Below are positions 1 through 6,076 of a stretch of 6,076 nucleotides of DNA, one piece after another (within the stretch, counting starts at the first letter, position 1; each line of letters starts with the position of its first letter). The stretch is taken from the NCBI GenBank assembly GCA_031406795.1, contig JANOHV010000209.1, forward strand, positions 1-6,076, written 5' to 3'. The stretch is from DATDCY01 sp031406795 [NCBI: Candidatus Rokuibacteriota bacterium]. Lineage in GTDB: Bacteria; JAUVQV01. A program made the translations under genes and the position numbers. The notes under the pieces are model-generated. The model was not told where the DNA came from and searched no databases. It saw only the letters and a list, made by a program, of their open reading frames with translations.

Positions 1-443
1 CCCTGCGCCCGCTGCACGGCGGTGGTCAGGGAGCTGAGCGAGCCGGCTTCCACGCTGATGAAATCCATGTACTTGACGAAGCCCGAATACAGCACGTTGC
101 GGCCGTAGGCGGCCTTGATGATCACCGCGGAGTCGGGCACCGCGGACAACATCAGCGGACCGTCCATGCGGCTGCGGTGGTTGACGACGTAGACCGCCGG
201 CCCCGCGGAACGGGCCCGCTCCAGACCCGAGAGCTCGCGGACGCGGTAGACCCCGAGAAAGGGCAGGTAGACACGGGAGAGAAAATAGACATACCACCGG
301 AAGATGCCGTGGATGAACCGGTGCCGCAGCCCCGGAAAAGGCGCCAGCACGAAGTAGACCGGCACCACGATTACGGTGAAGATCACGTGGCCCGAGAAGT
401 AGAACAGGTAGCCGATGAAGGCGGCCAGGGGCGTAAGGCTCAT
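1..443 (-). CDS. PlsC-like lysophospholipid/1-acylglycerol-phosphate-type acyltransferase, N-terminal part (3' end beyond window)
   Basis: Reading the minus strand from ATG at 443 gives 147 open codons running off the window edge. Residues about 9-34 are strongly hydrophobic (FIGYLFYFSGHVIFTVIVVP), a likely membrane anchor, and a second aromatic-rich stretch covers about 43-64. The sequence VVNHRSRMDGP contains the HX4D catalytic motif of the glycerolipid acyltransferase superfamily at His89 and Asp94. Family members transfer an acyl chain from ACP or CoA to a lysolipid or other hydroxyl acceptor at the inner membrane. The downstream FPEG-type motif would lie outside the window, so the acceptor cannot be judged. 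The region after HX4D is divergent: it reads DFISVEAGS where an IxxDR-like segment is usual. The frame stays open upstream of 443 and a GTG lies directly before the ATG, but ATG443 gives a natural start before the membrane segment. The Shine-Dalgarno match is weak. Divergent orientation next to KS, ACP and radical SAM genes suggests it attaches the pathway product to a lipid (inference). Confidence 0.85.
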   Translation of the reverse strand, partial: MSLTPLAAFIGYLFYFSGHVIFTVIVVPVYFVLAPFPGLRHRFIHGIFRWYVYFLSRVYLPFLGVYRVRELSGLERARSAGPAVYVVNHRSRMDGPLMLSAVPDSAVIIKAAYGRNVLYSGFVKYMDFISVEAGSLSSLTTAVQRAQ

Positions 444-452
444 CACCGGTTG

Positions 453-525: not shown

Positions 526-535
526 GGGGAAAAGG
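526..535 (+). promoter_or_regulatory. Ribosome binding site deciding the start of radical SAM protein 1
   Basis: GGGGAAAAGG lies just before ATG537, with the GGGGA core six bases from the start codon. The same reading frame is open far upstream (to 177, and through an ATG at 492), but only ATG537 has this purine-rich site and begins the protein with MKIYFI, the usual first beta strand of a B12-binding domain. Confidence 0.6.
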
Positions 536-536
536 C

Positions 537-1826
537 ATGAAGATCTATTTCATCTGGGCCGGCTGGGAAAAACTGTACAAGCTCAACTACAACATCCCGC
601 CGTTGGGCATCCTGCGGGTCGCCGGCGAGACGCCGCCCGCGATTCCGATCTCCTTCACCGACGAAACGGTCTCCGCCATCGATTTCGACGCCGATGCGGA
701 TGTCGTCGCATTATCCTTCCTGACGCCGGCCGCCGGTCGGGCGTATGAAATCGCCGCGCAGTTCCGGCAACGGGGAAAATACGTCGTGTTCGGCGGCACG
801 CACGCCACGATCATGCCGCAGCAGTGCGCCGAACACGCCGACACGGTCTTCATCGGGGAAGCGGAGGGCCTGTGGACCCGGTTCCTGGCCGATTATGCGG
901 CGGGAACGCCGCAGAAGACCTATTGCCACGCTCAGTTCCCCCGGCTCGACAACCTGGCGCCGGTACCCCGACACCTGCTGAAGACGCACATCTACCCCTA
1001 CGAGAGCCCTTTTCCCGTCGGGATCGAATCGGTGGAACTGTCGCGGGGCTGCACCTCCCGGTGCGCCTACTGCACGGTGCCGATCACGCAGGGGCCGCTC
1101 TTCCGCAACCGGCCGCTGGCGGAGATCACCGCGGAGTTCGCCTCCATCGCGCCTACCGGCGGCATCATCTTCTTCACGGACAACAATCTGCTCGGCAACA
1201 AGGCGTTCACGCGCGGCGCGCTGGAGGCGCTGATCCCCTTCGAGAAGGACTGGATCGGGTTGCTGGCCCCGGAGGAAACCGCGGCGGATCCGGAGACGCT
1301 CGACCTGATGGTGCGCAGCGGGTTGTGCGGCATCTACGGCACGGTCAAGGCCATCACCGGCCGCGAGACCCAACAGGAGTTGGAGACCCGGAGCGCCTCG
1401 CTGAAGCGGCTGATGGACCTGGGGATCGTCGTAATCGCCACCTTCGCGCTGGGCTGGGACGACCACGACGAGTCGGTTTTCGACCGGACTCTGGAATTCT
1501 GCCGTCGATCCGGGTTGCAGGTGCCCGAATTCATCATCAACACACCCTTCCCCGGTTCCCGGCTGTTCAAAAAGTACACAGCGGAGAACCGGGTCCTGAC
1601 GCTGGATTGGGGGAAGTACAACGGGAACTACGCGGTCTTCCGGCCGGCGAAGATGTCCCCTGAACGGCTCGAGGCCGGCTACCACCACTGCTATGACCAG
1701 TTCTACCGGGAAGTCGACCGCGACAAGGCCCTGTTCGAGGGGTTTCGCGGTCGCGTCATGAAAGCATTCATCCGGGCCGGTCGAAATACGGCCGCCAGGA
1801 ATCCCCCGCGACGTTCCCGCGCCTGA
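537..1826 (+). CDS. B12-binding domain radical SAM protein (stand-alone, 429 aa)
   Basis: Residues about 1-135 look like a cobalamin-binding Rossmann domain of the kind found in B12 radical SAM enzymes: an MKIYFI first strand, the PPLGILRVAG segment, a GG pair at 86-87 followed by THAT, and GEAEG at 107-111. The radical SAM core follows, with the cluster motif CTSRCAYC supplying Cys172, Cys176 and Cys179 for the [4Fe-4S] cluster that cleaves S-adenosylmethionine. Later blocks include FFTDNN, NTPFPGSRLF and a C-terminal YNGNYAVFRP segment. Members of this superfamily methylate unactivated carbons or form and rearrange rings, usually without oxygen; the actual reaction here cannot be read from sequence. 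It is a paralogue of the first third of the next gene, with the same domain order and near-identical block spacing. It is slightly less GC-biased than that neighbour and ends in a basic tail (PPRRSRA). The gene is divergent from the acyltransferase and co-oriented with the fusion gene 110 bp downstream. ATG537 was chosen because the longer frame would overlap the acyltransferase gene. Confidence 0.9.
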   Translation: MKIYFIWAGWEKLYKLNYNIPPLGILRVAGETPPAIPISFTDETVSAIDFDADADVVALSFLTPAAGRAYEIAAQFRQRGKYVVFGGTHATIMPQQCAEHADTVFIGEAEGLWTRFLADYAAGTPQKTYCHAQFPRLDNLAPVPRHLLKTHIYPYESPFPVGIESVELSRGCTSRCAYCTVPITQGPLFRNRPLAEITAEFASIAPTGGIIFFTDNNLLGNKAFTRGALEALIPFEKDWIGLLAPEETAADPETLDLMVRSGLCGIYGTVKAITGRETQQELETRSASLKRLMDLGIVVIATFALGWDDHDESVFDRTLEFCRRSGLQVPEFIINTPFPGSRLFKKYTAENRVLTLDWGKYNGNYAVFRPAKMSPERLEAGYHHCYDQFYREVDRDKALFEGFRGRVMKAFIRAGRNTAARNPPRRSRA

Positions 1827-1827
1827 C

Positions 1828-1857
1828 CCGGTGCTGCTTGACACCGGCGAACCGGTG
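1828..1857. repeat. Alternating CCGGTG / CACCGG / CCGGTG repeats over a -35 box
   Basis: CCGGTG (1828-1833), CACCGG (1842-1847) and CCGGTG (1852-1857) are three copies of one hexamer, the middle one inverted. The last two form a perfect stem of six pairs around a CGAA loop, and the first two flank an 8-base gap. TTGACA (1838-1843) lies within the set. It begins two bases after the stop codon of the upstream gene, so it could be an operator for the fusion gene or a small hairpin at the end of the upstream message. No T-run follows, so it is not a classic intrinsic terminator. Confidence 0.4.
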
Positions 1858-1866
1858 AGGTATTCA
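1838..1866 (+). promoter_or_regulatory. Sigma70-like promoter candidate for the radical SAM-KS-CLF gene
   Basis: An exact TTGACA is followed after exactly 17 bases by TATTCA, which matches only the first three positions of the -10 consensus. Transcription would start near 1873, leaving a leader of about 64 bases. The spacer contains the CACCGG-CGAA-CCGGTG inverted repeat, which would allow repression. The gene may equally be read through from the upstream gene, since no terminator is evident. Confidence 0.35.
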
Positions 1867-1921
1867 GTGTCGCTTCCTCCAGCCCCGCGGGCCGATACGG
1901 GCGCCGCGCCGCCGGAGGGCA

Positions 1922-1927
1922 TATACT
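1922..1927 (+). promoter_or_regulatory. Alternative -10 box placing the transcript start at the ATG
   Basis: TATACT matches the -10 consensus at five of six positions, ten bases before ATG1937, with no -35 hexamer 17 bases upstream. If used, the transcript would be almost leaderless. This fits the lack of a Shine-Dalgarno sequence close to ATG1937: the nearest, GGAGGG at 1914-1919, is 17 bases away. Confidence 0.2.
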
Positions 1928-1936
1928 GAAACCGCG

Positions 1937-4900
1937 ATGAAAGTCACCTTCGTTTATCCGAGATTCGAGAAGTTCCTCTCCGGCCTCCCGGAGCTGGATT
2001 CCGGCCTGGTCGACTACTTCCTCGGGAACTTCACCACCCCGCCGTCGCTCGGCATCCCGATCCTGGCCGCGCTGACCCCGGCCGATATCGAGGTCGAGTT
2101 CGTCGACGACAACGGCGGCATGCCGCTCGACTACGACGCCCCCACCGATCTGGTGGCGATCAACTGCTTCACCCCGCAGGCGACCCGGGCGTTCGAGATC
2201 GCCGACGGTTTCCGGGCCCGCGGACGCCAGGTCATCATGGGCGGCTTCTTCCCGTCGTTCATGGCGGAGGAGTGCCTGAAGCACGCCGACTCGGTCAACA
2301 TCGGCGAGGGGGAGCCGACCTGGCCGCTGATCCTGGAGGACGCCCGGCGCGGGATGCTCAAGCCGAAGTACCACGGCGGCCACAGCTTCGACCTCGCGAA
2401 GATGCCCATTCCCCGCCGGGAGGTCTTCTACGGCGTGGAGACCTACGACTGGGACGAGGACCTGGTGCAGGTCACCCGGGGGTGCTCCTACGGCTGCCAC
2501 ATGTGCGCGATCCCGGCGCACATGGGCAACCGGATCCGCTTCCGCCCGATCGAGAAGGTCGTCGAGGAGATCCGGGGCCTCAAGCACGAGAACGTCTACC
2601 TCGCCGACGACTCCCTGTTCTTCCCGCAGCGCCGCACGCGCGAGTACGCCGAGGCCCTCTTCCGGGCGCTCGAGCCGCTGGGAAAGAAGTATTTCGTCTC
2701 CTCGACGATGGCGCTGAACGTCGACCCGGCGTTCCTCGACCTGGCCGTCAAGGCCGGCATGCGCAACTTCTACTGCACGATGAACGTCGACCCGGTGTCG
2801 ATCAAGGCCCTCCAGGGCGAGGAGCGCGAGCGCCGCCTGCTGGCCGACCTGGTCCGGGCCATCGAGGACCGGGGGGCGCGCTTCTTCGCCTCCTGCGCCA
2901 TCGGCCGCGACTGGGACGGCCCGAACATCGGCGAACGCGTGCTGGAGCTCTTCGACGCCGCCGGCATCCGCACCGCCGAGTTCTTCCTCTTCACCCCGTA
3001 CCCGGGGACGCCGCTCTGGGACCGCCTCGAGCGCCAGGGGCGGATCATCGACCGCACCTGGTCCCACTACAACGGCGCCCATGTCGTCACCCGCCCGCTG
3101 GCGATGACCCCCGAGCAGTTGCGCGAGGAGTTTCTGCTCGTCTGGCGGGAGTTCTTCAAGCGACAGAAGGAGCGGCACGCCACGCACCTGGAGCCGGCGA
3201 CCTGGAAGGAGGGCCGGCAAGTGGTCGGCAAGCCGCTGCGGCAGCAGGGGGTCGAGAACCAGGCGGTGATCACGGGGATCGGCCTGCTGAGCCCGATCGG
3301 CAACGACCCGGAGACCGTCACCGAATCGCTGCGCACCGGCCGCCACGGCATCGTGCCGATCACCCGGTTCGACGCCAGCTTCTTCCGCTCCAACCTGGTC
3401 GGCGAGGTGCCCCTCGACCCGACGCTCGGGCTGGACGACCCCGAACTGGCGCAGTTCGACGATCCGTACCTGCGCTTCGCCGTCGTGACCGCCCGGCGGG
3501 CCCTGCGCGACGCCGGAGTGGCGACCGACCCGCGGGCGCCGCGTTCGGACATCGCGATGGTGCTCGGCACCTGCAACGGCGGCCTGCGTTCCGGCGAGGC
3601 GGAGTACGCCTGGAAACACGGCAAGAGCGGGACGGCCTTCGACGAGCGGATGAACCTTCAGGCCCAGTTCTACGGGTTCGGCAAGGCCATGGCCAACGCG
3701 CTCGGACTCGGCGCCGAAGCCTGGGTCGTGACGACCGCCTGCTCTTCCACGACGGCCGCGCTCGGTCTGGCGCAGCTGCTGATTAACCGGGGCCACTTCA
3801 ACACCGTCCTGGTGGGCGGCGCCGACGTGCTCTGCGTGGCCAACATGGCCGGCTTCGACGCCCTCAAGGCCACCTCCCCGGGGCGCATGGCCCCCTTCTC
3901 CCAGCCCTGCGGGATCAACATCGGCGAGGCGGCCTGCTTCTGGGTGATCGAGAACATGGAGCAGGCGCTGCTGCGCAAGGCGCGCCTCATCGGCCGTCTG
4001 GCCGGCCACGCCACCACCGCCGACGCCTACCACCCGACCAGCCCGGACCCGCGCGGCGGTGGCGTCTACCGGACCCTGCGCGACGCGCTGGCCGACTCCG
4101 GGCTGCCGCTCGAGCAGATCGGCGCGATCAACGCCCACGGCAGCGGGACCGAGGCCAACGACCGGGCCGAGTCCAAGGGAATCCAGAAGTTCCTCGGCGA
4201 ACACTGCGTGCCGGTGGTCTCGACCAAGTCCTTCTTCGGGCACTGCATGGGCGCCACCGGCATCCTCGAAACCACCTGTCAGCTGCTGGCCATGAACGCC
4301 GGCTTCATCCCGCCCACGCTGAACTTCGGCGAGGCCCGCCCGGGATGCACGCTCGACTACGTGCCGAACGAGGCGCGCCCGGCCGACTACCCGGCCTTCG
4401 TGTCGGCCAACTACGCCTTCGGCGGCAACAACGCCGCCGTCGTGGTGACCCGTTGGGACCACCCGACGCCCCCCCGGCCGCGACGCTGCGGCCGGGTGGT
4501 CATCACCGGTCTCGGGACGGTCACCGCGGCCGGGATCGGAACGGCCCGCCTGCTCGAGGCGCTGCGGGAGGGCCGCACCGGCGTGGCGCCGGTGACGCGG
4601 TTCCCGCTGCCGGCGCAGATCCGCTCGCGCATGGCGGGGATGGTCGAGCCGTTCCGCGAAGCCGCCGTCGACCGCCGCCTGGATTTCTCGTCGCTCAACG
4701 ACATCAGCCGCTACGCGGTGTCCGCGGCGAAGCTCGCCCTCGACGACGCCCGCCTGCGCGTCGGCCAGGCCAACGCCGATCGGGTCGGCGTGACGATGGG
4801 GGTCTGCAACGGCACCGCGGAGACGGCCCACATGGACAGCGTCTTCGGCAGCGACACCTGCACCGGGCAGGTCAGCAGCTTCTCCAACATCGTGCCCAAC

Positions 4901-5692
4901 TCCACGGCCGGCTGGGTCTCGGCGTCGCTCCAGCTCCGCGGGGTGAATTGCACGCTGGCCGCCGGCCCGCACGCCGGGCTCCAGAGCCTGGCCTACGCCT
5001 ACGAGGCGCTCGCCGAGGAGCGAGCGCTTGCCGTCGTGGCCGCGGCGTCCGACGAGATCTACCCCCAGACTTACTACAACTACGACACCATGGATTTTCT
5101 CTATCAGGGGGCGAAGGAGGAGGAGTTCCGGATCAGACCGGAGGAGAGCAAGCGCAAGGTCCTCGGCGAGGGTGCCGCGGCGCTCGTGCTGGAGGCCGCG
5201 GCGGCGGCGCTGGAGCGGGGCGCGCCGATACTCGCCGAGGTCCTGGGCCAGGGGATGACCATGGACACCGGGGGCTTTCTGGAGCCGAACCTCGACCCGG
5301 AAGGGCTCTGCCGGGCCATCGAACTGGCTCTGGACCGGGCCGCGGCCACGCCCGACCAGGTCGACCTGCTGGTCTGGGCGCCCCAGGGGAACCGTCAGGA
5401 CATCAAGGTGCTGGAGGCCTGCCGGAAGGTCTTCGGCGACCGGTTTGCCGACCTGCCGCTTGCCGGAGCCACAGCCGCCACCGGCTTCATCGAGTCGGCT
5501 TCGATCCTGGTCAGCCTTGCCGCGACCCTCCAGGCGCTCAAGGAGGGAACGAACCTCTGGCCGGCCAAGACGGGCCTCACAGAGCTTGATGGCCGGCAAC
5601 TCAAGGCCGCCCCCCGGCTGATCATGGCAGTAGCGAGCAGCGACGTCGGTTACAACTTCTCGGTGGTGCTCCGCAACGGCTGGGCGGGGTAG
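1937..5692 (+). CDS. Trifunctional-type fusion: B12-binding radical SAM - ketosynthase - chain-length-factor-like protein (1251 aa)
   Basis: Three modules lie in one uninterrupted frame. Module one (residues about 1-430) is a B12-binding radical SAM enzyme: GG at 102-103, GEGE at 123-126, and the cluster motif CSYGCHMC giving Cys183, Cys187 and Cys190. Module two (about 442-845) is a FabF-type ketosynthase that condenses an acyl chain with malonyl-ACP. It is intact: TTACSST with Cys602, HGSGTE with His734, STKSFFGH with Lys764 and His769, and a terminal AFGGNN loop. A Pro/Arg-rich linker follows. Module three (about 853-1251) has the same fold (VVITGLGTVT start, VLGEGAAALVLE) but the nucleophile region reads AAGPHAGL with Pro1011 at the Cys position, WAPQGN replaces the HG motif, and the Lys/His motif is missing, as in the chain-length factors that pair with type II ketosynthases. 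The covalent combination is unusual. ATG1937 is chosen because it begins MKVTFVYP, a proper first strand; its own ribosome site is poor. The product and the radical SAM substrate are unknown. Confidence 0.9.
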   Translation: MKVTFVYPRFEKFLSGLPELDSGLVDYFLGNFTTPPSLGIPILAALTPADIEVEFVDDNGGMPLDYDAPTDLVAINCFTPQATRAFEIADGFRARGRQVIMGGFFPSFMAEECLKHADSVNIGEGEPTWPLILEDARRGMLKPKYHGGHSFDLAKMPIPRREVFYGVETYDWDEDLVQVTRGCSYGCHMCAIPAHMGNRIRFRPIEKVVEEIRGLKHENVYLADDSLFFPQRRTREYAEALFRALEPLGKKYFVSSTMALNVDPAFLDLAVKAGMRNFYCTMNVDPVSIKALQGEERERRLLADLVRAIEDRGARFFASCAIGRDWDGPNIGERVLELFDAAGIRTAEFFLFTPYPGTPLWDRLERQGRIIDRTWSHYNGAHVVTRPLAMTPEQLREEFLLVWREFFKRQKERHATHLEPATWKEGRQVVGKPLRQQGVENQAVITGIGLLSPIGNDPETVTESLRTGRHGIVPITRFDASFFRSNLVGEVPLDPTLGLDDPELAQFDDPYLRFAVVTARRALRDAGVATDPRAPRSDIAMVLGTCNGGLRSGEAEYAWKHGKSGTAFDERMNLQAQFYGFGKAMANALGLGAEAWVVTTACSSTTAALGLAQLLINRGHFNTVLVGGADVLCVANMAGFDALKATSPGRMAPFSQPCGINIGEAACFWVIENMEQALLRKARLIGRLAGHATTADAYHPTSPDPRGGGVYRTLRDALADSGLPLEQIGAINAHGSGTEANDRAESKGIQKFLGEHCVPVVSTKSFFGHCMGATGILETTCQLLAMNAGFIPPTLNFGEARPGCTLDYVPNEARPADYPAFVSANYAFGGNNAAVVVTRWDHPTPPRPRRCGRVVITGLGTVTAAGIGTARLLEALREGRTGVAPVTRFPLPAQIRSRMAGMVEPFREAAVDRRLDFSSLNDISRYAVSAAKLALDDARLRVGQANADRVGVTMGVCNGTAETAHMDSVFGSDTCTGQVSSFSNIVPNSTAGWVSASLQLRGVNCTLAAGPHAGLQSLAYAYEALAEERALAVVAAASDEIYPQTYYNYDTMDFLYQGAKEEEFRIRPEESKRKVLGEGAAALVLEAAAAALERGAPILAEVLGQGMTMDTGGFLEPNLDPEGLCRAIELALDRAAATPDQVDLLVWAPQGNRQDIKVLEACRKVFGDRFADLPLAGATAATGFIESASILVSLAATLQALKEGTNLWPAKTGLTELDGRQLKAAPRLIMAVASSDVGYNFSVVLRNGWAG
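3206..3223 (+). promoter_or_regulatory. Internal ribosome binding site and in-frame GTG at the radical SAM/KS boundary
   Basis: AAGGAGG (3206-3212) stands eight bases before GTG (3221-3223), which is in frame as Val429 of the fusion protein. The codon falls 13 residues before the first strand of the ketosynthase (QAVITGIG, from residue 442) and where the radical SAM module should end, judging by the 429-residue length of its paralogue upstream. This is a better ribosome site than the one at the annotated start. It could produce a separate KS-CLF protein of about 823 residues, or be a relic of two once-separate genes. Confidence 0.5.
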
Positions 5693-5737
5693 CGTCACCT
5701 TTCCCCTCCTCTTCCTGGTTTGCGTCAAAGAATCGAA

Positions 5738-5840: not shown

Positions 5841-6076
5841 ATGGGGAACGAAGATTTTCAGGGGCTCATCGATCGCCGGGCGGCGATCATCAATACGCTC
5901 AAACCGGAGCTGATCAAGCGGTTCAACCTGCCCTACACTCCGGAAGATCTCCACGAGGATGTCTCGCTGCTCGGCTCCGGGCTCGGGCTCGACTCCCTGG
6001 ACGCGCTGGAGATCGTGCTGTGCGTCGAGAGCTGCTTCAAGGTCAAGGTGCCCGACAACAGCATGTCGATCCTGCG
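5841..6076 (+). CDS. Acyl carrier protein, N-terminal 78 residues (3' end beyond window)
   Basis: The frame from ATG5841 encodes a small, acidic, helix-rich protein open to the window edge. LGSGLGLDSLDALEIV is the classic carrier protein motif, with Ser52 (codon 5994-5996) as the phosphopantetheine attachment site, followed by the expected helix II and the VKVPDNSMS region. Typical acyl carrier proteins have about 75-95 residues, and the serine at 52 means a somewhat long N-terminus, so only a short C-terminal part is probably missing. It would carry the growing acyl chain as a thioester for the KS-CLF modules encoded upstream and possibly present it to the radical SAM enzymes and the acyltransferase (inference from context). 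GAGAGGA (5821-5827) is 13 bases from the ATG and GGGGA (5834-5838) only two bases away, so the ribosome site is imperfect, but the start is well supported by the carrier protein fold. It has its own promoter. Confidence 0.9.
   Translation, partial: MGNEDFQGLIDRRAAIINTLKPELIKRFNLPYTPEDLHEDVSLLGSGLGLDSLDALEIVLCVESCFKVKVPDNSMSIL

What the first reader, a model, noticed from the sequence alone, without database searches (positions are those of the whole stretch)
1937..5692. Covalent fusion of a B12 radical SAM enzyme with a ketosynthase and a chain-length-factor-like domain
One open frame joins a complete B12-binding radical SAM enzyme (Cys183/187/190) to an intact ketosynthase (Cys602/His734/His769) and a second, inactive ketosynthase fold. 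Type II KS and CLF are normally separate proteins, and I know of no well-characterised enzyme with this three-part arrangement. The fusion implies radical chemistry coupled to chain elongation, perhaps acting on an ACP-bound intermediate held by the KS-CLF pair. The domain content is seen in the sequence; novelty and coupling are inference.
Basis: partly seen in the sequence, partly recalled or inferred. Interest (0 to 1): 0.82.

Follow-up and report, generated by a model that had tools for sequence, protein, structure and literature searches.

The report
Radical SAM enzyme fused to ketosynthase-CLF
A real, conserved bacterial protein joins a radical enzyme to a fat-chain-building enzyme and its inactive partner in one chain, in gene clusters resembling those for aryl polyene pigments and ladderane lipids, so radical chemistry may act on the chain while it is being built.

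Summary
Window 1937-5692 (+) is one open 1251-codon frame: radical SAM enzyme with an N-terminal B12-type domain, intact ketosynthase (C602/H734/H769), and an inactive ketosynthase fold (CLF). It is no assembly artefact: I found 24 fused relatives (21 complete, 53-69% identical) in Verrucomicrobiota and Fibrobacterota. The Fe-S cysteines are conserved in 25 of 25 copies. The 25 fused radical SAM domains form one clade (100/100), which points to one fusion event; in genome G737 a related radical SAM gene and a ketosynthase gene lie unfused, 12 bases apart. The KS-CLF half alone is not new: it models like the fused PfaC KS-CLF didomain, and KS-CLF genes without the radical SAM part exist. Three paper searches found nothing on the three-part protein, in a partial library. 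Neighbours (ACP, FabG, FabD, FabZ, acyltransferase; in G713 also ammonia lyase, ligase, MMPL exporter) point to a reducing type II polyketide/fatty-acid pathway making a polyene-type lipid. Most likely the KS-CLF elongates an ACP-bound chain and the radical SAM domain modifies that chain (inferred). Which reaction, and whether cobalamin is used, is undecided. New variant of a known kind.

The parts
1937..3226 (+). Radical SAM module, aa 1-430: B12-type Rossmann domain (about aa 1-140) plus radical SAM barrel with C183/C187/C190
   Evidence: Pfam; conservation; AlphaFold2 pLDDT 91.3, pTM 0.89; matches AprD4, MgmA, CysS, OxsB, TsrM over nearly its whole length
3227..4474 (+). Linker and ketosynthase, about aa 431-846, with C602, H734, K764, H769
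4475..5692 (+). Chain-length-factor-like inactive ketosynthase, about aa 847-1251; catalytic Cys replaced by Pro1011 (next residue His1012)
   Evidence: KS-CLF packing within one chain predicted like PfaC 6riw
5841..6076 (+). Acyl carrier protein with LDSLDALE phosphopantetheine site, cut by the window end (codons to 6074)
   Evidence: PF00550; 75% identical to the ACP after the fusion in G004, itself PF00550; sequence
534..1826 (+). Second, separate B12-type radical SAM gene, 430 aa, with GGTHAT motif; outside the fused clade
3..446 (-). PlsC-like acyltransferase, cut by the window start
   Evidence: PF01553; 37% identical to the acyltransferase near the G004 fusion

Best explanation
The protein is a chain-elongating KS-CLF enzyme of a reducing, type II fatty-acid/polyketide pathway that carries its own radical SAM tailoring domain. 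Shown: one conserved reading frame, intact radical SAM and ketosynthase catalytic residues, an inactive CLF, one clade of fused radical SAM domains, and an ACP as next gene in 12 of 17 loci that could be judged. Predicted: KS and CLF fold back on each other in one chain as in PfaC. Inferred: the neighbouring ACP delivers the growing chain to Cys602; KS-CLF condenses it with malonyl-ACP; FabG and FabZ homologues reduce and dehydrate, giving a polyene-type chain; and the N-terminal domain makes a 5'-deoxyadenosyl radical that changes that ACP-bound chain during or just after elongation. Most likely change: formation of a new carbon-carbon bond (methylation or ring closure, about equal), less likely a radical dehydration or desaturation. 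The product probably ends in an aryl-polyene-like or ladderane-like membrane lipid.
For: One frame in window and 21 complete relatives. Catalytic residues conserved. One clade of 25 fused radical SAM domains. Model of aa 52-1251: pLDDT 86.5, pTM 0.86, best PDB match PfaC KS-CLF over 934 alignment columns. ACP follows in 12 of the 17 loci with enough flank, a GCV_T-like gene in 11, FabG in 11, FabD in 7, PlsC in 7, FabZ-type in 6 (reference genes confirmed by Pfam). G713 locus: AMP ligase, glycosyltransferase-acyltransferase, aromatic amino-acid lyase, MMPL exporter, KS, FabG, fusion, ACP, GCV_T, FabG, FMN reductase, FabA-type dehydratase, PlsC. G004 contig carries, 17-33 kb from the fusion, an aromatic amino-acid lyase, a TIGR04072 'ladderane' radical SAM (418.9 bits, cut-off 360) and a FlxY-like ligase (467 bits, under its 520 cut-off). 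Precedent for radical SAM acting with iterative elongation: polycyclopropanating PKS with stand-alone HemN-like cyclopropanase (passages of PMC13389473).
Against: No experiment. Orthologous KS-CLF didomains in G326 and G348 lack the radical SAM domain; G348 had no radical SAM match at 1e-8 and G326 only a distant one (28%), so elongation itself need not depend on it. ACP was not found next to the fusion in 5 of 17 loci (G002, G005, G312, G436, G728). Cobalamin use unproven. On the KS-CLF half of the tree the fused copies are not recovered as one clade, though one clade is not rejected (p-AU 0.356). The substrate and product are not visible in sequence.
Confidence: 0.6

Rival explanations
1. 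Fusion for convenience: the radical SAM domain acts independently on the finished lipid or on another pathway intermediate, and the fusion only fixes stoichiometry and location. No coupling to elongation.
For: In related clusters the radical SAM gene and ketosynthase are separate and presumably work unfused (G737, 12 bases between the genes; G003 and G004, a more distant radical SAM directly before a ketosynthase; G712, G739, G738, in one cluster). Another member of the wider radical SAM family is fused to a CrtI-like desaturase instead (G005).
Against: The three-part frame is intact in all 22 complete copies (window included) across two phyla, with a conserved linker of about 20 residues, and the model places the domains with fair overall confidence (pTM 0.86).
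Confidence: 0.25
2. Cobalamin-free radical dehydratase or desaturase: the B12-type domain no longer binds cobalamin and the enzyme removes water or hydrogen from the chain, as AprD4 does from a diol.
For: AprD4 (titled a 1,2-diol dehydratase in the PDB; that it works without cobalamin is recalled, not from a call) is the closest structure, Z 31.3 against 26.3 for MgmA, 25.1 CysS, 23.0 OxsB. B12-binding Pfam score is below its cut-off. The GGxH motif of 13 of 13 unfused relatives is GGxF in 25 of 25 fused copies.
Against: MgmA, a cobalamin methylase (recalled), also seems to lack that His (0.9-bit alignment), so the motif does not decide. A FabZ-type dehydratase gene is already near the fusion in 6 of 17 loci.
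Confidence: 0.2
3. A ladderane-type synthase: the protein helps build concatenated cyclobutanes on an ACP-bound chain.
For: The gene kinds listed for anammox and Desulfotalea clusters (radical SAM, phytoene-desaturase-like, divergent FabF, CoA ligase, glycosyltransferase; PMC2649909 abstract and section 9) recur in genomes with the fusion; TIGR04072 passes its cut-off in 11 of 167 genomes, 10 of which are among the 17 with the fusion; a Cariaco Basin study reports antiSMASH 'ladderane' clusters in Fibrobacterota and Verrucomicrobiota with unknown function (passages of PMC9902471).
Against: The fused protein itself scores 45.9 bits against TIGR04072 (cut-off 360). In the four genomes whose TIGR04072 locus I fetched (of 11), my 28 reference proteins detected no ketosynthase or ACP beside it, though a CrtI/amine-oxidase-type gene lies 3 kb away in G738. 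The same Cariaco passages say ladderane lipids are known only from anammox Planctomycetota. The most complete cluster looks aryl-polyene-like.
Confidence: 0.08
4. Artefact: mis-assembly or frameshift fuses separate genes.
For: None found.
Against: 21 complete relatives from separate genomes have the same frame; codon-position G+C is steady across the junctions.
Confidence: 0.01

Closest known systems
PfaC KS-CLF didomain of PUFA synthases (6riw)
   Same: Active KS followed by inactive CLF in one chain, predicted to pack alike
   Different: No radical SAM domain in the matched entry; PfaC belongs to a multidomain PUFA synthase (passages of PMC12895367)
Aryl polyene / flexirubin type clusters
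   Same: Aromatic amino-acid lyase, ligase, KS, KR, DH, ACP, acyltransferases and MMPL exporter around the fusion in G713, and several of these kinds on the G004 contig; the comparison to published clusters is recalled
   Different: KS and CLF are separate proteins there and no radical SAM domain is part of them (recalled)
Anammox ladderane and Desulfotalea FASII clusters
   Same: Radical SAM with B12 domain, divergent ketosynthases, phytoene-desaturase-like enzymes and CoA ligase (PMC2649909, abstract and section 9); these kinds occur in several of the genomes searched here
   Different: No radical SAM-KS-CLF fusion is mentioned in the sections read; the fused protein is outside TIGR04072
Polycyclopropanating iterative PKS with radical SAM cyclopropanase (jawsamycin type)
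   Same: Radical SAM enzyme working with an iterative elongating ketosynthase
   Different: Cyclopropanase is a stand-alone HemN-like enzyme with a Cx7CxxC motif, not fused (passages of PMC13389473)
AprD4, MgmA, CysS, OxsB, TsrM (B12-type radical SAM structures)
   Same: Same two-domain fold over nearly the whole module, Z 22.8-31.3
   Different: 13-19% identity; none of these matched chains is a ketosynthase fusion

Membership tests
Radical SAM superfamily | CxxxCxxC cluster motif | tested here: met
   C183/C187/C190 in 25 of 25 fused copies; Pfam above cut-off
Cobalamin-dependent radical SAM enzymes | Cobalamin-binding Rossmann domain before the barrel | tested here: inconclusive
   Fold aligns over nearly the full length with MgmA, CysS, OxsB, TsrM but best with AprD4; Pfam B12-binding 26.3 bits, below 32.1; GGxH motif changed to GGxF
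Cobalamin-dependent radical SAM enzymes | Binding and use of cobalamin | not testable with these tools
   Needs purified protein
TIGR04072 ladderane-type B12 radical SAM | Score over curated cut-off 360 bits | tested here: not met
   45.9 bits for the fused protein
KS-CLF condensing enzymes | KS with Cys-His-His | tested here: met
   C602 in 27 of 27 rows; H734 and H769 in 26 of 26 rows that reach them
KS-CLF condensing enzymes | Partner fold without the catalytic residues | tested here: met
   No Cys at the active-site column in any of the 26 rows that reach it, and neither His motif kept in the rows shown that reach them
KS-CLF condensing enzymes | KS and CLF pack as a pseudo-dimer | tested here: inconclusive
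   Prediction only: pTM 0.86 and best match PfaC 6riw (TM 0.68 by target length, 0.53 by query, rmsd 5.7)
Type II (ACP-dependent) pathway | Discrete ACP with phosphopantetheine serine encoded nearby | tested here: met
   Window 5841-6074, PF00550 25.0 bits over cut-off 20.8, LDSL motif
Aryl polyene / flexirubin cluster | Aromatic amino-acid lyase, ligase, KR, DH, KS/CLF, acyltransferase, MMPL exporter together (list recalled) | tested here: inconclusive
   Seen around the fusion in G713 and, by similarity, in part in G725; the 6 kb window itself shows only acyltransferase and ACP

The most novel reading that the evidence does not exclude
This is the first elongating ketosynthase with a built-in radical SAM domain: each growing chain is altered by radical chemistry (ring closure or C-methylation) while held by the KS-CLF and its ACP, giving a carbocyclic or branched aryl-polyene-like membrane lipid unknown so far, and a fused relative of the ladderane machinery.
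Probability: 0.25. Interest if true: 0.88.

Novelty: new variant of a known kind. Interest (0 to 1): 0.63.

Why it matters
How radical SAM enzymes act on ACP-bound chains in ladderane and related pathways is open: passages seen here call the ladderane pathway and its ring-forming enzymes unknown (PMC9821293; PMC9902471). A natural single-chain fusion with a defined ACP and operon turns 'which radical SAM works with which ketosynthase' into a testable question with one protein, and names sets of mostly uncultured bacteria with unexplained 'ladderane' or aryl-polyene-like clusters in which to look for the product.

Tried and rejected
Artefact was rejected by 21 complete relatives. A viral-contig scan found nothing. 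A tblastn of plasmids gave 916 records, none covering 80% of the query; the 30 listed matched only the KS and KS-KS part. The long antisense ORF (1703-5728, minus) lies antisense to a frame with strong third-position G+C bias; not tested further. In the ketosynthase tree three rows labelled FabF (L025, L026, L030) look like wrong-frame ORFs, and only 12 fused copies and two KS-KS didomains could be split for it; I use it only for the remark on the second KS-KS gene. The tree was rebuilt on the whole KS-CLF didomain, where the place of the unfused orthologs G326 and G348 is unresolved (fused copies not one clade in the free tree; one clade not rejected, p-AU 0.356), so the order of fusion and possible loss is unsettled on that half. 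The radical SAM tree carries a long-branch warning for the unfused rows. The His-to-Phe change in the GGxH motif was considered as proof of lost cobalamin binding and rejected as proof, because MgmA seems to lack the His too (very weak alignment). Distribution outside Verrucomicrobiota and Fibrobacterota was not searched with whole genomes; the genome-contig scan uses exact 8-residue patterns and finds close relatives only, and only 1 to 4 candidates per genome were scored, so counts are lower bounds. Further paper searches gave nothing on this architecture: one search listed seven papers on cluster surveys and five papers, none opened. Model coordinates are not exposed, so the distance between radical SAM and KS active sites was not measured.
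Full report
What is there. Window 1937-5692 (+) is a single 1251-codon frame beginning with ATG. Pfam finds Radical_SAM at aa 178-280 above its cut-off, a sub-threshold B12-binding hit at aa 66-128, and two ketoacyl-synthase modules. Codon-position G+C shows the same frame from start to end, with third positions at 0.96 (radical SAM), 0.95 (KS) and 0.91 (CLF). Around it lie a second, separate B12-type radical SAM gene (534-1826 +), a PlsC-like acyltransferase (3-446 -) and an acyl carrier protein (5841 to the window end +).

It is real and conserved. No host genome is held. A pattern scan of one genome per species found six loci encoding relatives. Four from Verrucomicrobia (L001-L004) and one from a Chitinivibrionales genome (L005; phylum Fibrobacterota) match end to end at 63-69% identity; L006 is cut by its contig end. 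Whole-genome searches gave the fusion in 2 of 387 genomes of the phylum of G004 (G004, G312), 5 of 320 of the order of G001 (G001-G004, G436) and 17 of 167 of the phylum of G005. In all, 24 relatives are in hand, 21 complete and 3 cut by contig ends (G006, G312, G730). The 21 complete ones are 53-69% identical to the window protein in one alignment, 1244-1271 aa long, without internal stops. The cluster cysteines are conserved in 25 of 25 copies and the KS triad in every copy that reaches it.

Origin. In a tree of 38 radical SAM domains the 25 fused ones form one clade (100/100), with all 13 unfused ones outside; the window sits with six of the seven other Verrucomicrobiota copies (97/97), G312 being unplaced. 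The program warns of long branches among the unfused rows. Unfused neighbours of the same kind exist: in G737 a radical SAM gene (L094 8342-9709) is followed, 12 bases after its stop, by a ketosynthase gene (9725-10960), together 35% identical over query 1-839. G003, G004 and G002 carry another, more distant radical SAM gene directly before a ketosynthase. KS-CLF didomain genes without a radical SAM domain occur in G326 (48% identical) and G348 (45%); G348 had no radical SAM match at 1e-8 and G326 only a distant 28% one. On the KS-CLF half the order of events is unresolved. A second KS-KS didomain gene follows the fusion directly in 12 loci (L001, L002, L005, G436, G738, G744, G739, G746, G724, G723, G729, G726).

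The CLF. The position of the catalytic Cys is Pro in 16 and His in 8 of the 24 fused copies that reach it; the G326 ortholog has His and the G348 ortholog Gln there. The His motifs are replaced by conserved WAPQGN-like and TGYIESAS-like stretches. It therefore should not condense by the usual mechanism. The model of aa 52-1251 has mean pLDDT 86.5 and pTM 0.86, and its best PDB match is the fused KS-CLF of PfaC, 6riw (934 alignment columns, E 1.2e-43, TM 0.68 by target length). A paper on PUFA synthases says the PfaC-KS-CLF didomain performs the final chain elongation (passages of PMC12895367). So covalent KS-CLF is known; what is new is the radical SAM part in front of it.

The radical SAM module. 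Modelled alone it is confident (pLDDT 91.3, pTM 0.89) and has the whole two-domain B12-type fold: AprD4 Z 31.3, MgmA 26.3, CysS 25.1, OxsB 23.0, TsrM 22.8. By sequence the radical SAM families listed (best 25 of 36 families for the whole protein) are far below cut-off: TIGR04013 66 bits, TIGR04072 46, HpnR 41.5, BchE 33. Whether cobalamin is bound is open: AprD4 is, from recall, cobalamin-independent; the Pfam B12 score is sub-threshold; and the GGxH motif seen in 13 of 13 unfused relatives is GGxF in 25 of 25 fused copies. But MgmA, a cobalamin methylase (recalled), also seems to lack the His in a very weak (0.9-bit) alignment, so this motif does not decide.

Neighbourhood. I counted only the 17 fused loci with enough sequence fetched downstream of the fusion (and of the second KS-KS gene where present); eight copies (G003, G006, G723, G724, G729, G730, G742, G746) were left out because the contig ends or too little was fetched. 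An ACP follows in 12 of 17 (window, G001, G004, G738, G744, G739, G741, G734, G725, G713, G726, G722) and a GCV_T-like gene in 11 of these 12, the window ending before it; neither was detected in G002, G005, G312, G436 and G728. Of the same 17, FabG-type genes were found in 11, FabD-type in 7, PlsC-type in 7 and FabZ-type in 6; the reference genes used were confirmed by Pfam. The G713 locus, scanned gene by gene, contains AMP ligase, glycosyltransferase plus lipid A acyltransferase domains, aromatic amino-acid lyase, MMPL exporter, ketosynthase, the fusion, GCV_T-like protein, FMN reductase with SCP2, FabA-type dehydratase and PlsC; one ORF that I had taken for a LolA-like carrier by eye gave no Pfam hit. 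ACP and two FabG genes there are by similarity. This resembles aryl polyene and flexirubin clusters (recalled). G725 shows lyase, MMPL, KS and FabG beside the fusion by similarity. In G312 the fusion is followed by a FlxY-like ligase (37%) and an MMPL gene (42%). The G004 contig adds, 17-33 kb from the fusion, an aromatic amino-acid lyase, a TIGR04072 member over its cut-off (418.9 bits) and a FlxY-like ligase (467 bits, cut-off 520).

Link to ladderane-type clusters. TIGR04072 passes its cut-off in 11 of 167 genomes of the phylum of G005 and in 0 of 14 control genomes; 10 of these 11 are among the 17 genomes with the fusion (Fisher p 5.8e-11, not corrected for kinship). In the four of the 11 whose TIGR04072 loci I fetched, my 28 reference proteins detected no ketosynthase or ACP beside it; an amine-oxidase/CrtI-type gene lies 3 kb away in G738. 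Rattray et al. 2009 (PMC2649909; abstract and section 9 read) list radical SAM, phytoene-desaturase-like, divergent FabF and phenylacetyl-CoA ligase genes in anammox and Desulfotalea clusters, and a Cariaco Basin paper (PMC9902471; passages read) reports 'ladderane' clusters in Fibrobacterota and Verrucomicrobiota with unknown function. The protein here is not a TIGR04072 member, so I do not file it as a ladderane enzyme.

Mechanism. I hold it most likely (0.6) that the KS-CLF part elongates an ACP-bound chain in a reducing type II pathway and the radical SAM part modifies that same chain. The choice between methylation, ring closure and dehydration/desaturation cannot be made from sequence. 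A chemical precedent for a radical SAM enzyme working with an iterative elongating synthase is the stand-alone cyclopropanase of polycyclopropanating PKS (passages of PMC13389473). A 2026 preprint on BchE (passages of PMC13142503) notes that the few known non-methylating cobalamin radical SAM enzymes all form rings or rearrange, and that such enzymes are proposed for ladderane rings; it also says that methylation is the predominant reaction of the class.

Literature. Searches for radical SAM + chain length factor + cobalamin + fusion, radical SAM + aryl polyene + cobalamin and radical SAM + ketosynthase + B12-binding + fused returned no paper; the library is open-licence PMC only.

Noticed in passing
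L051:1126-3888 (-), genome G005: A second fusion in the wider radical SAM family: a CrtI-like phytoene-desaturase-type protein joined to a B12-type radical SAM domain (921 aa), next to another CrtI-like gene, a lipid A acyltransferase-like gene, ACP and ketosynthase. Radical SAM matches in similarly long frames (927-968 aa) occur in G742, G744 and G728, not inspected.
   Followed up: partly
L001:7789-10395, L002:7623-9932, L005:6037-8364 and nine other loci: A second KS-KS didomain gene directly downstream of the fusion, in 12 loci; in the two placed the first half groups beside the fused KS (99/98) and the second beside the fused CLF (83/59, weak), as if the didomain was duplicated as a unit.
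   Followed up: partly
L053:10690-11793, L101:13932-15035: A glycine-cleavage T-protein-like (GCV_T) gene follows the ACP in 11 fused loci, and a GCV_T-type gene next to an ACP also occurs on the contigs of the unfused KS-CLF genes in G326 and G348; its role in a lipid cluster is unexplained.
   Followed up: no
window aa 102-107 (nt 2240-2257): GGxH motif of the B12-type domain is GGxF in all 25 fused copies and GGxH in all 13 unfused relatives compared, including the window's own upstream radical SAM.
   Followed up: partly
L101:15800-16891 (-): FMN reductase/flavodoxin-like domain joined to an SCP2 sterol-carrier-type domain near the fusion in G713; the same two-domain gene is near the fusion in L090 (G739), L099 (G725) and L003 (G003). 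Possible electron donor.
   Followed up: partly
L055:5150-8308: On the G004 contig an MMPL exporter-type protein is followed in the same 1053-aa frame by a SAM methyltransferase domain.
   Followed up: no
window 534-1826: A separate B12-type radical SAM gene directly upstream of the fusion; the tblastn showed no separate counterpart beside the fusion in the relatives' loci searched.
   Followed up: partly
L117:8919-13552 and L118:7978-10779: TIGR04072 members in G739 and G741 sit beside another B12-type radical SAM-like gene; no ketosynthase or ACP was detected nearby with the reference proteins.
   Followed up: no
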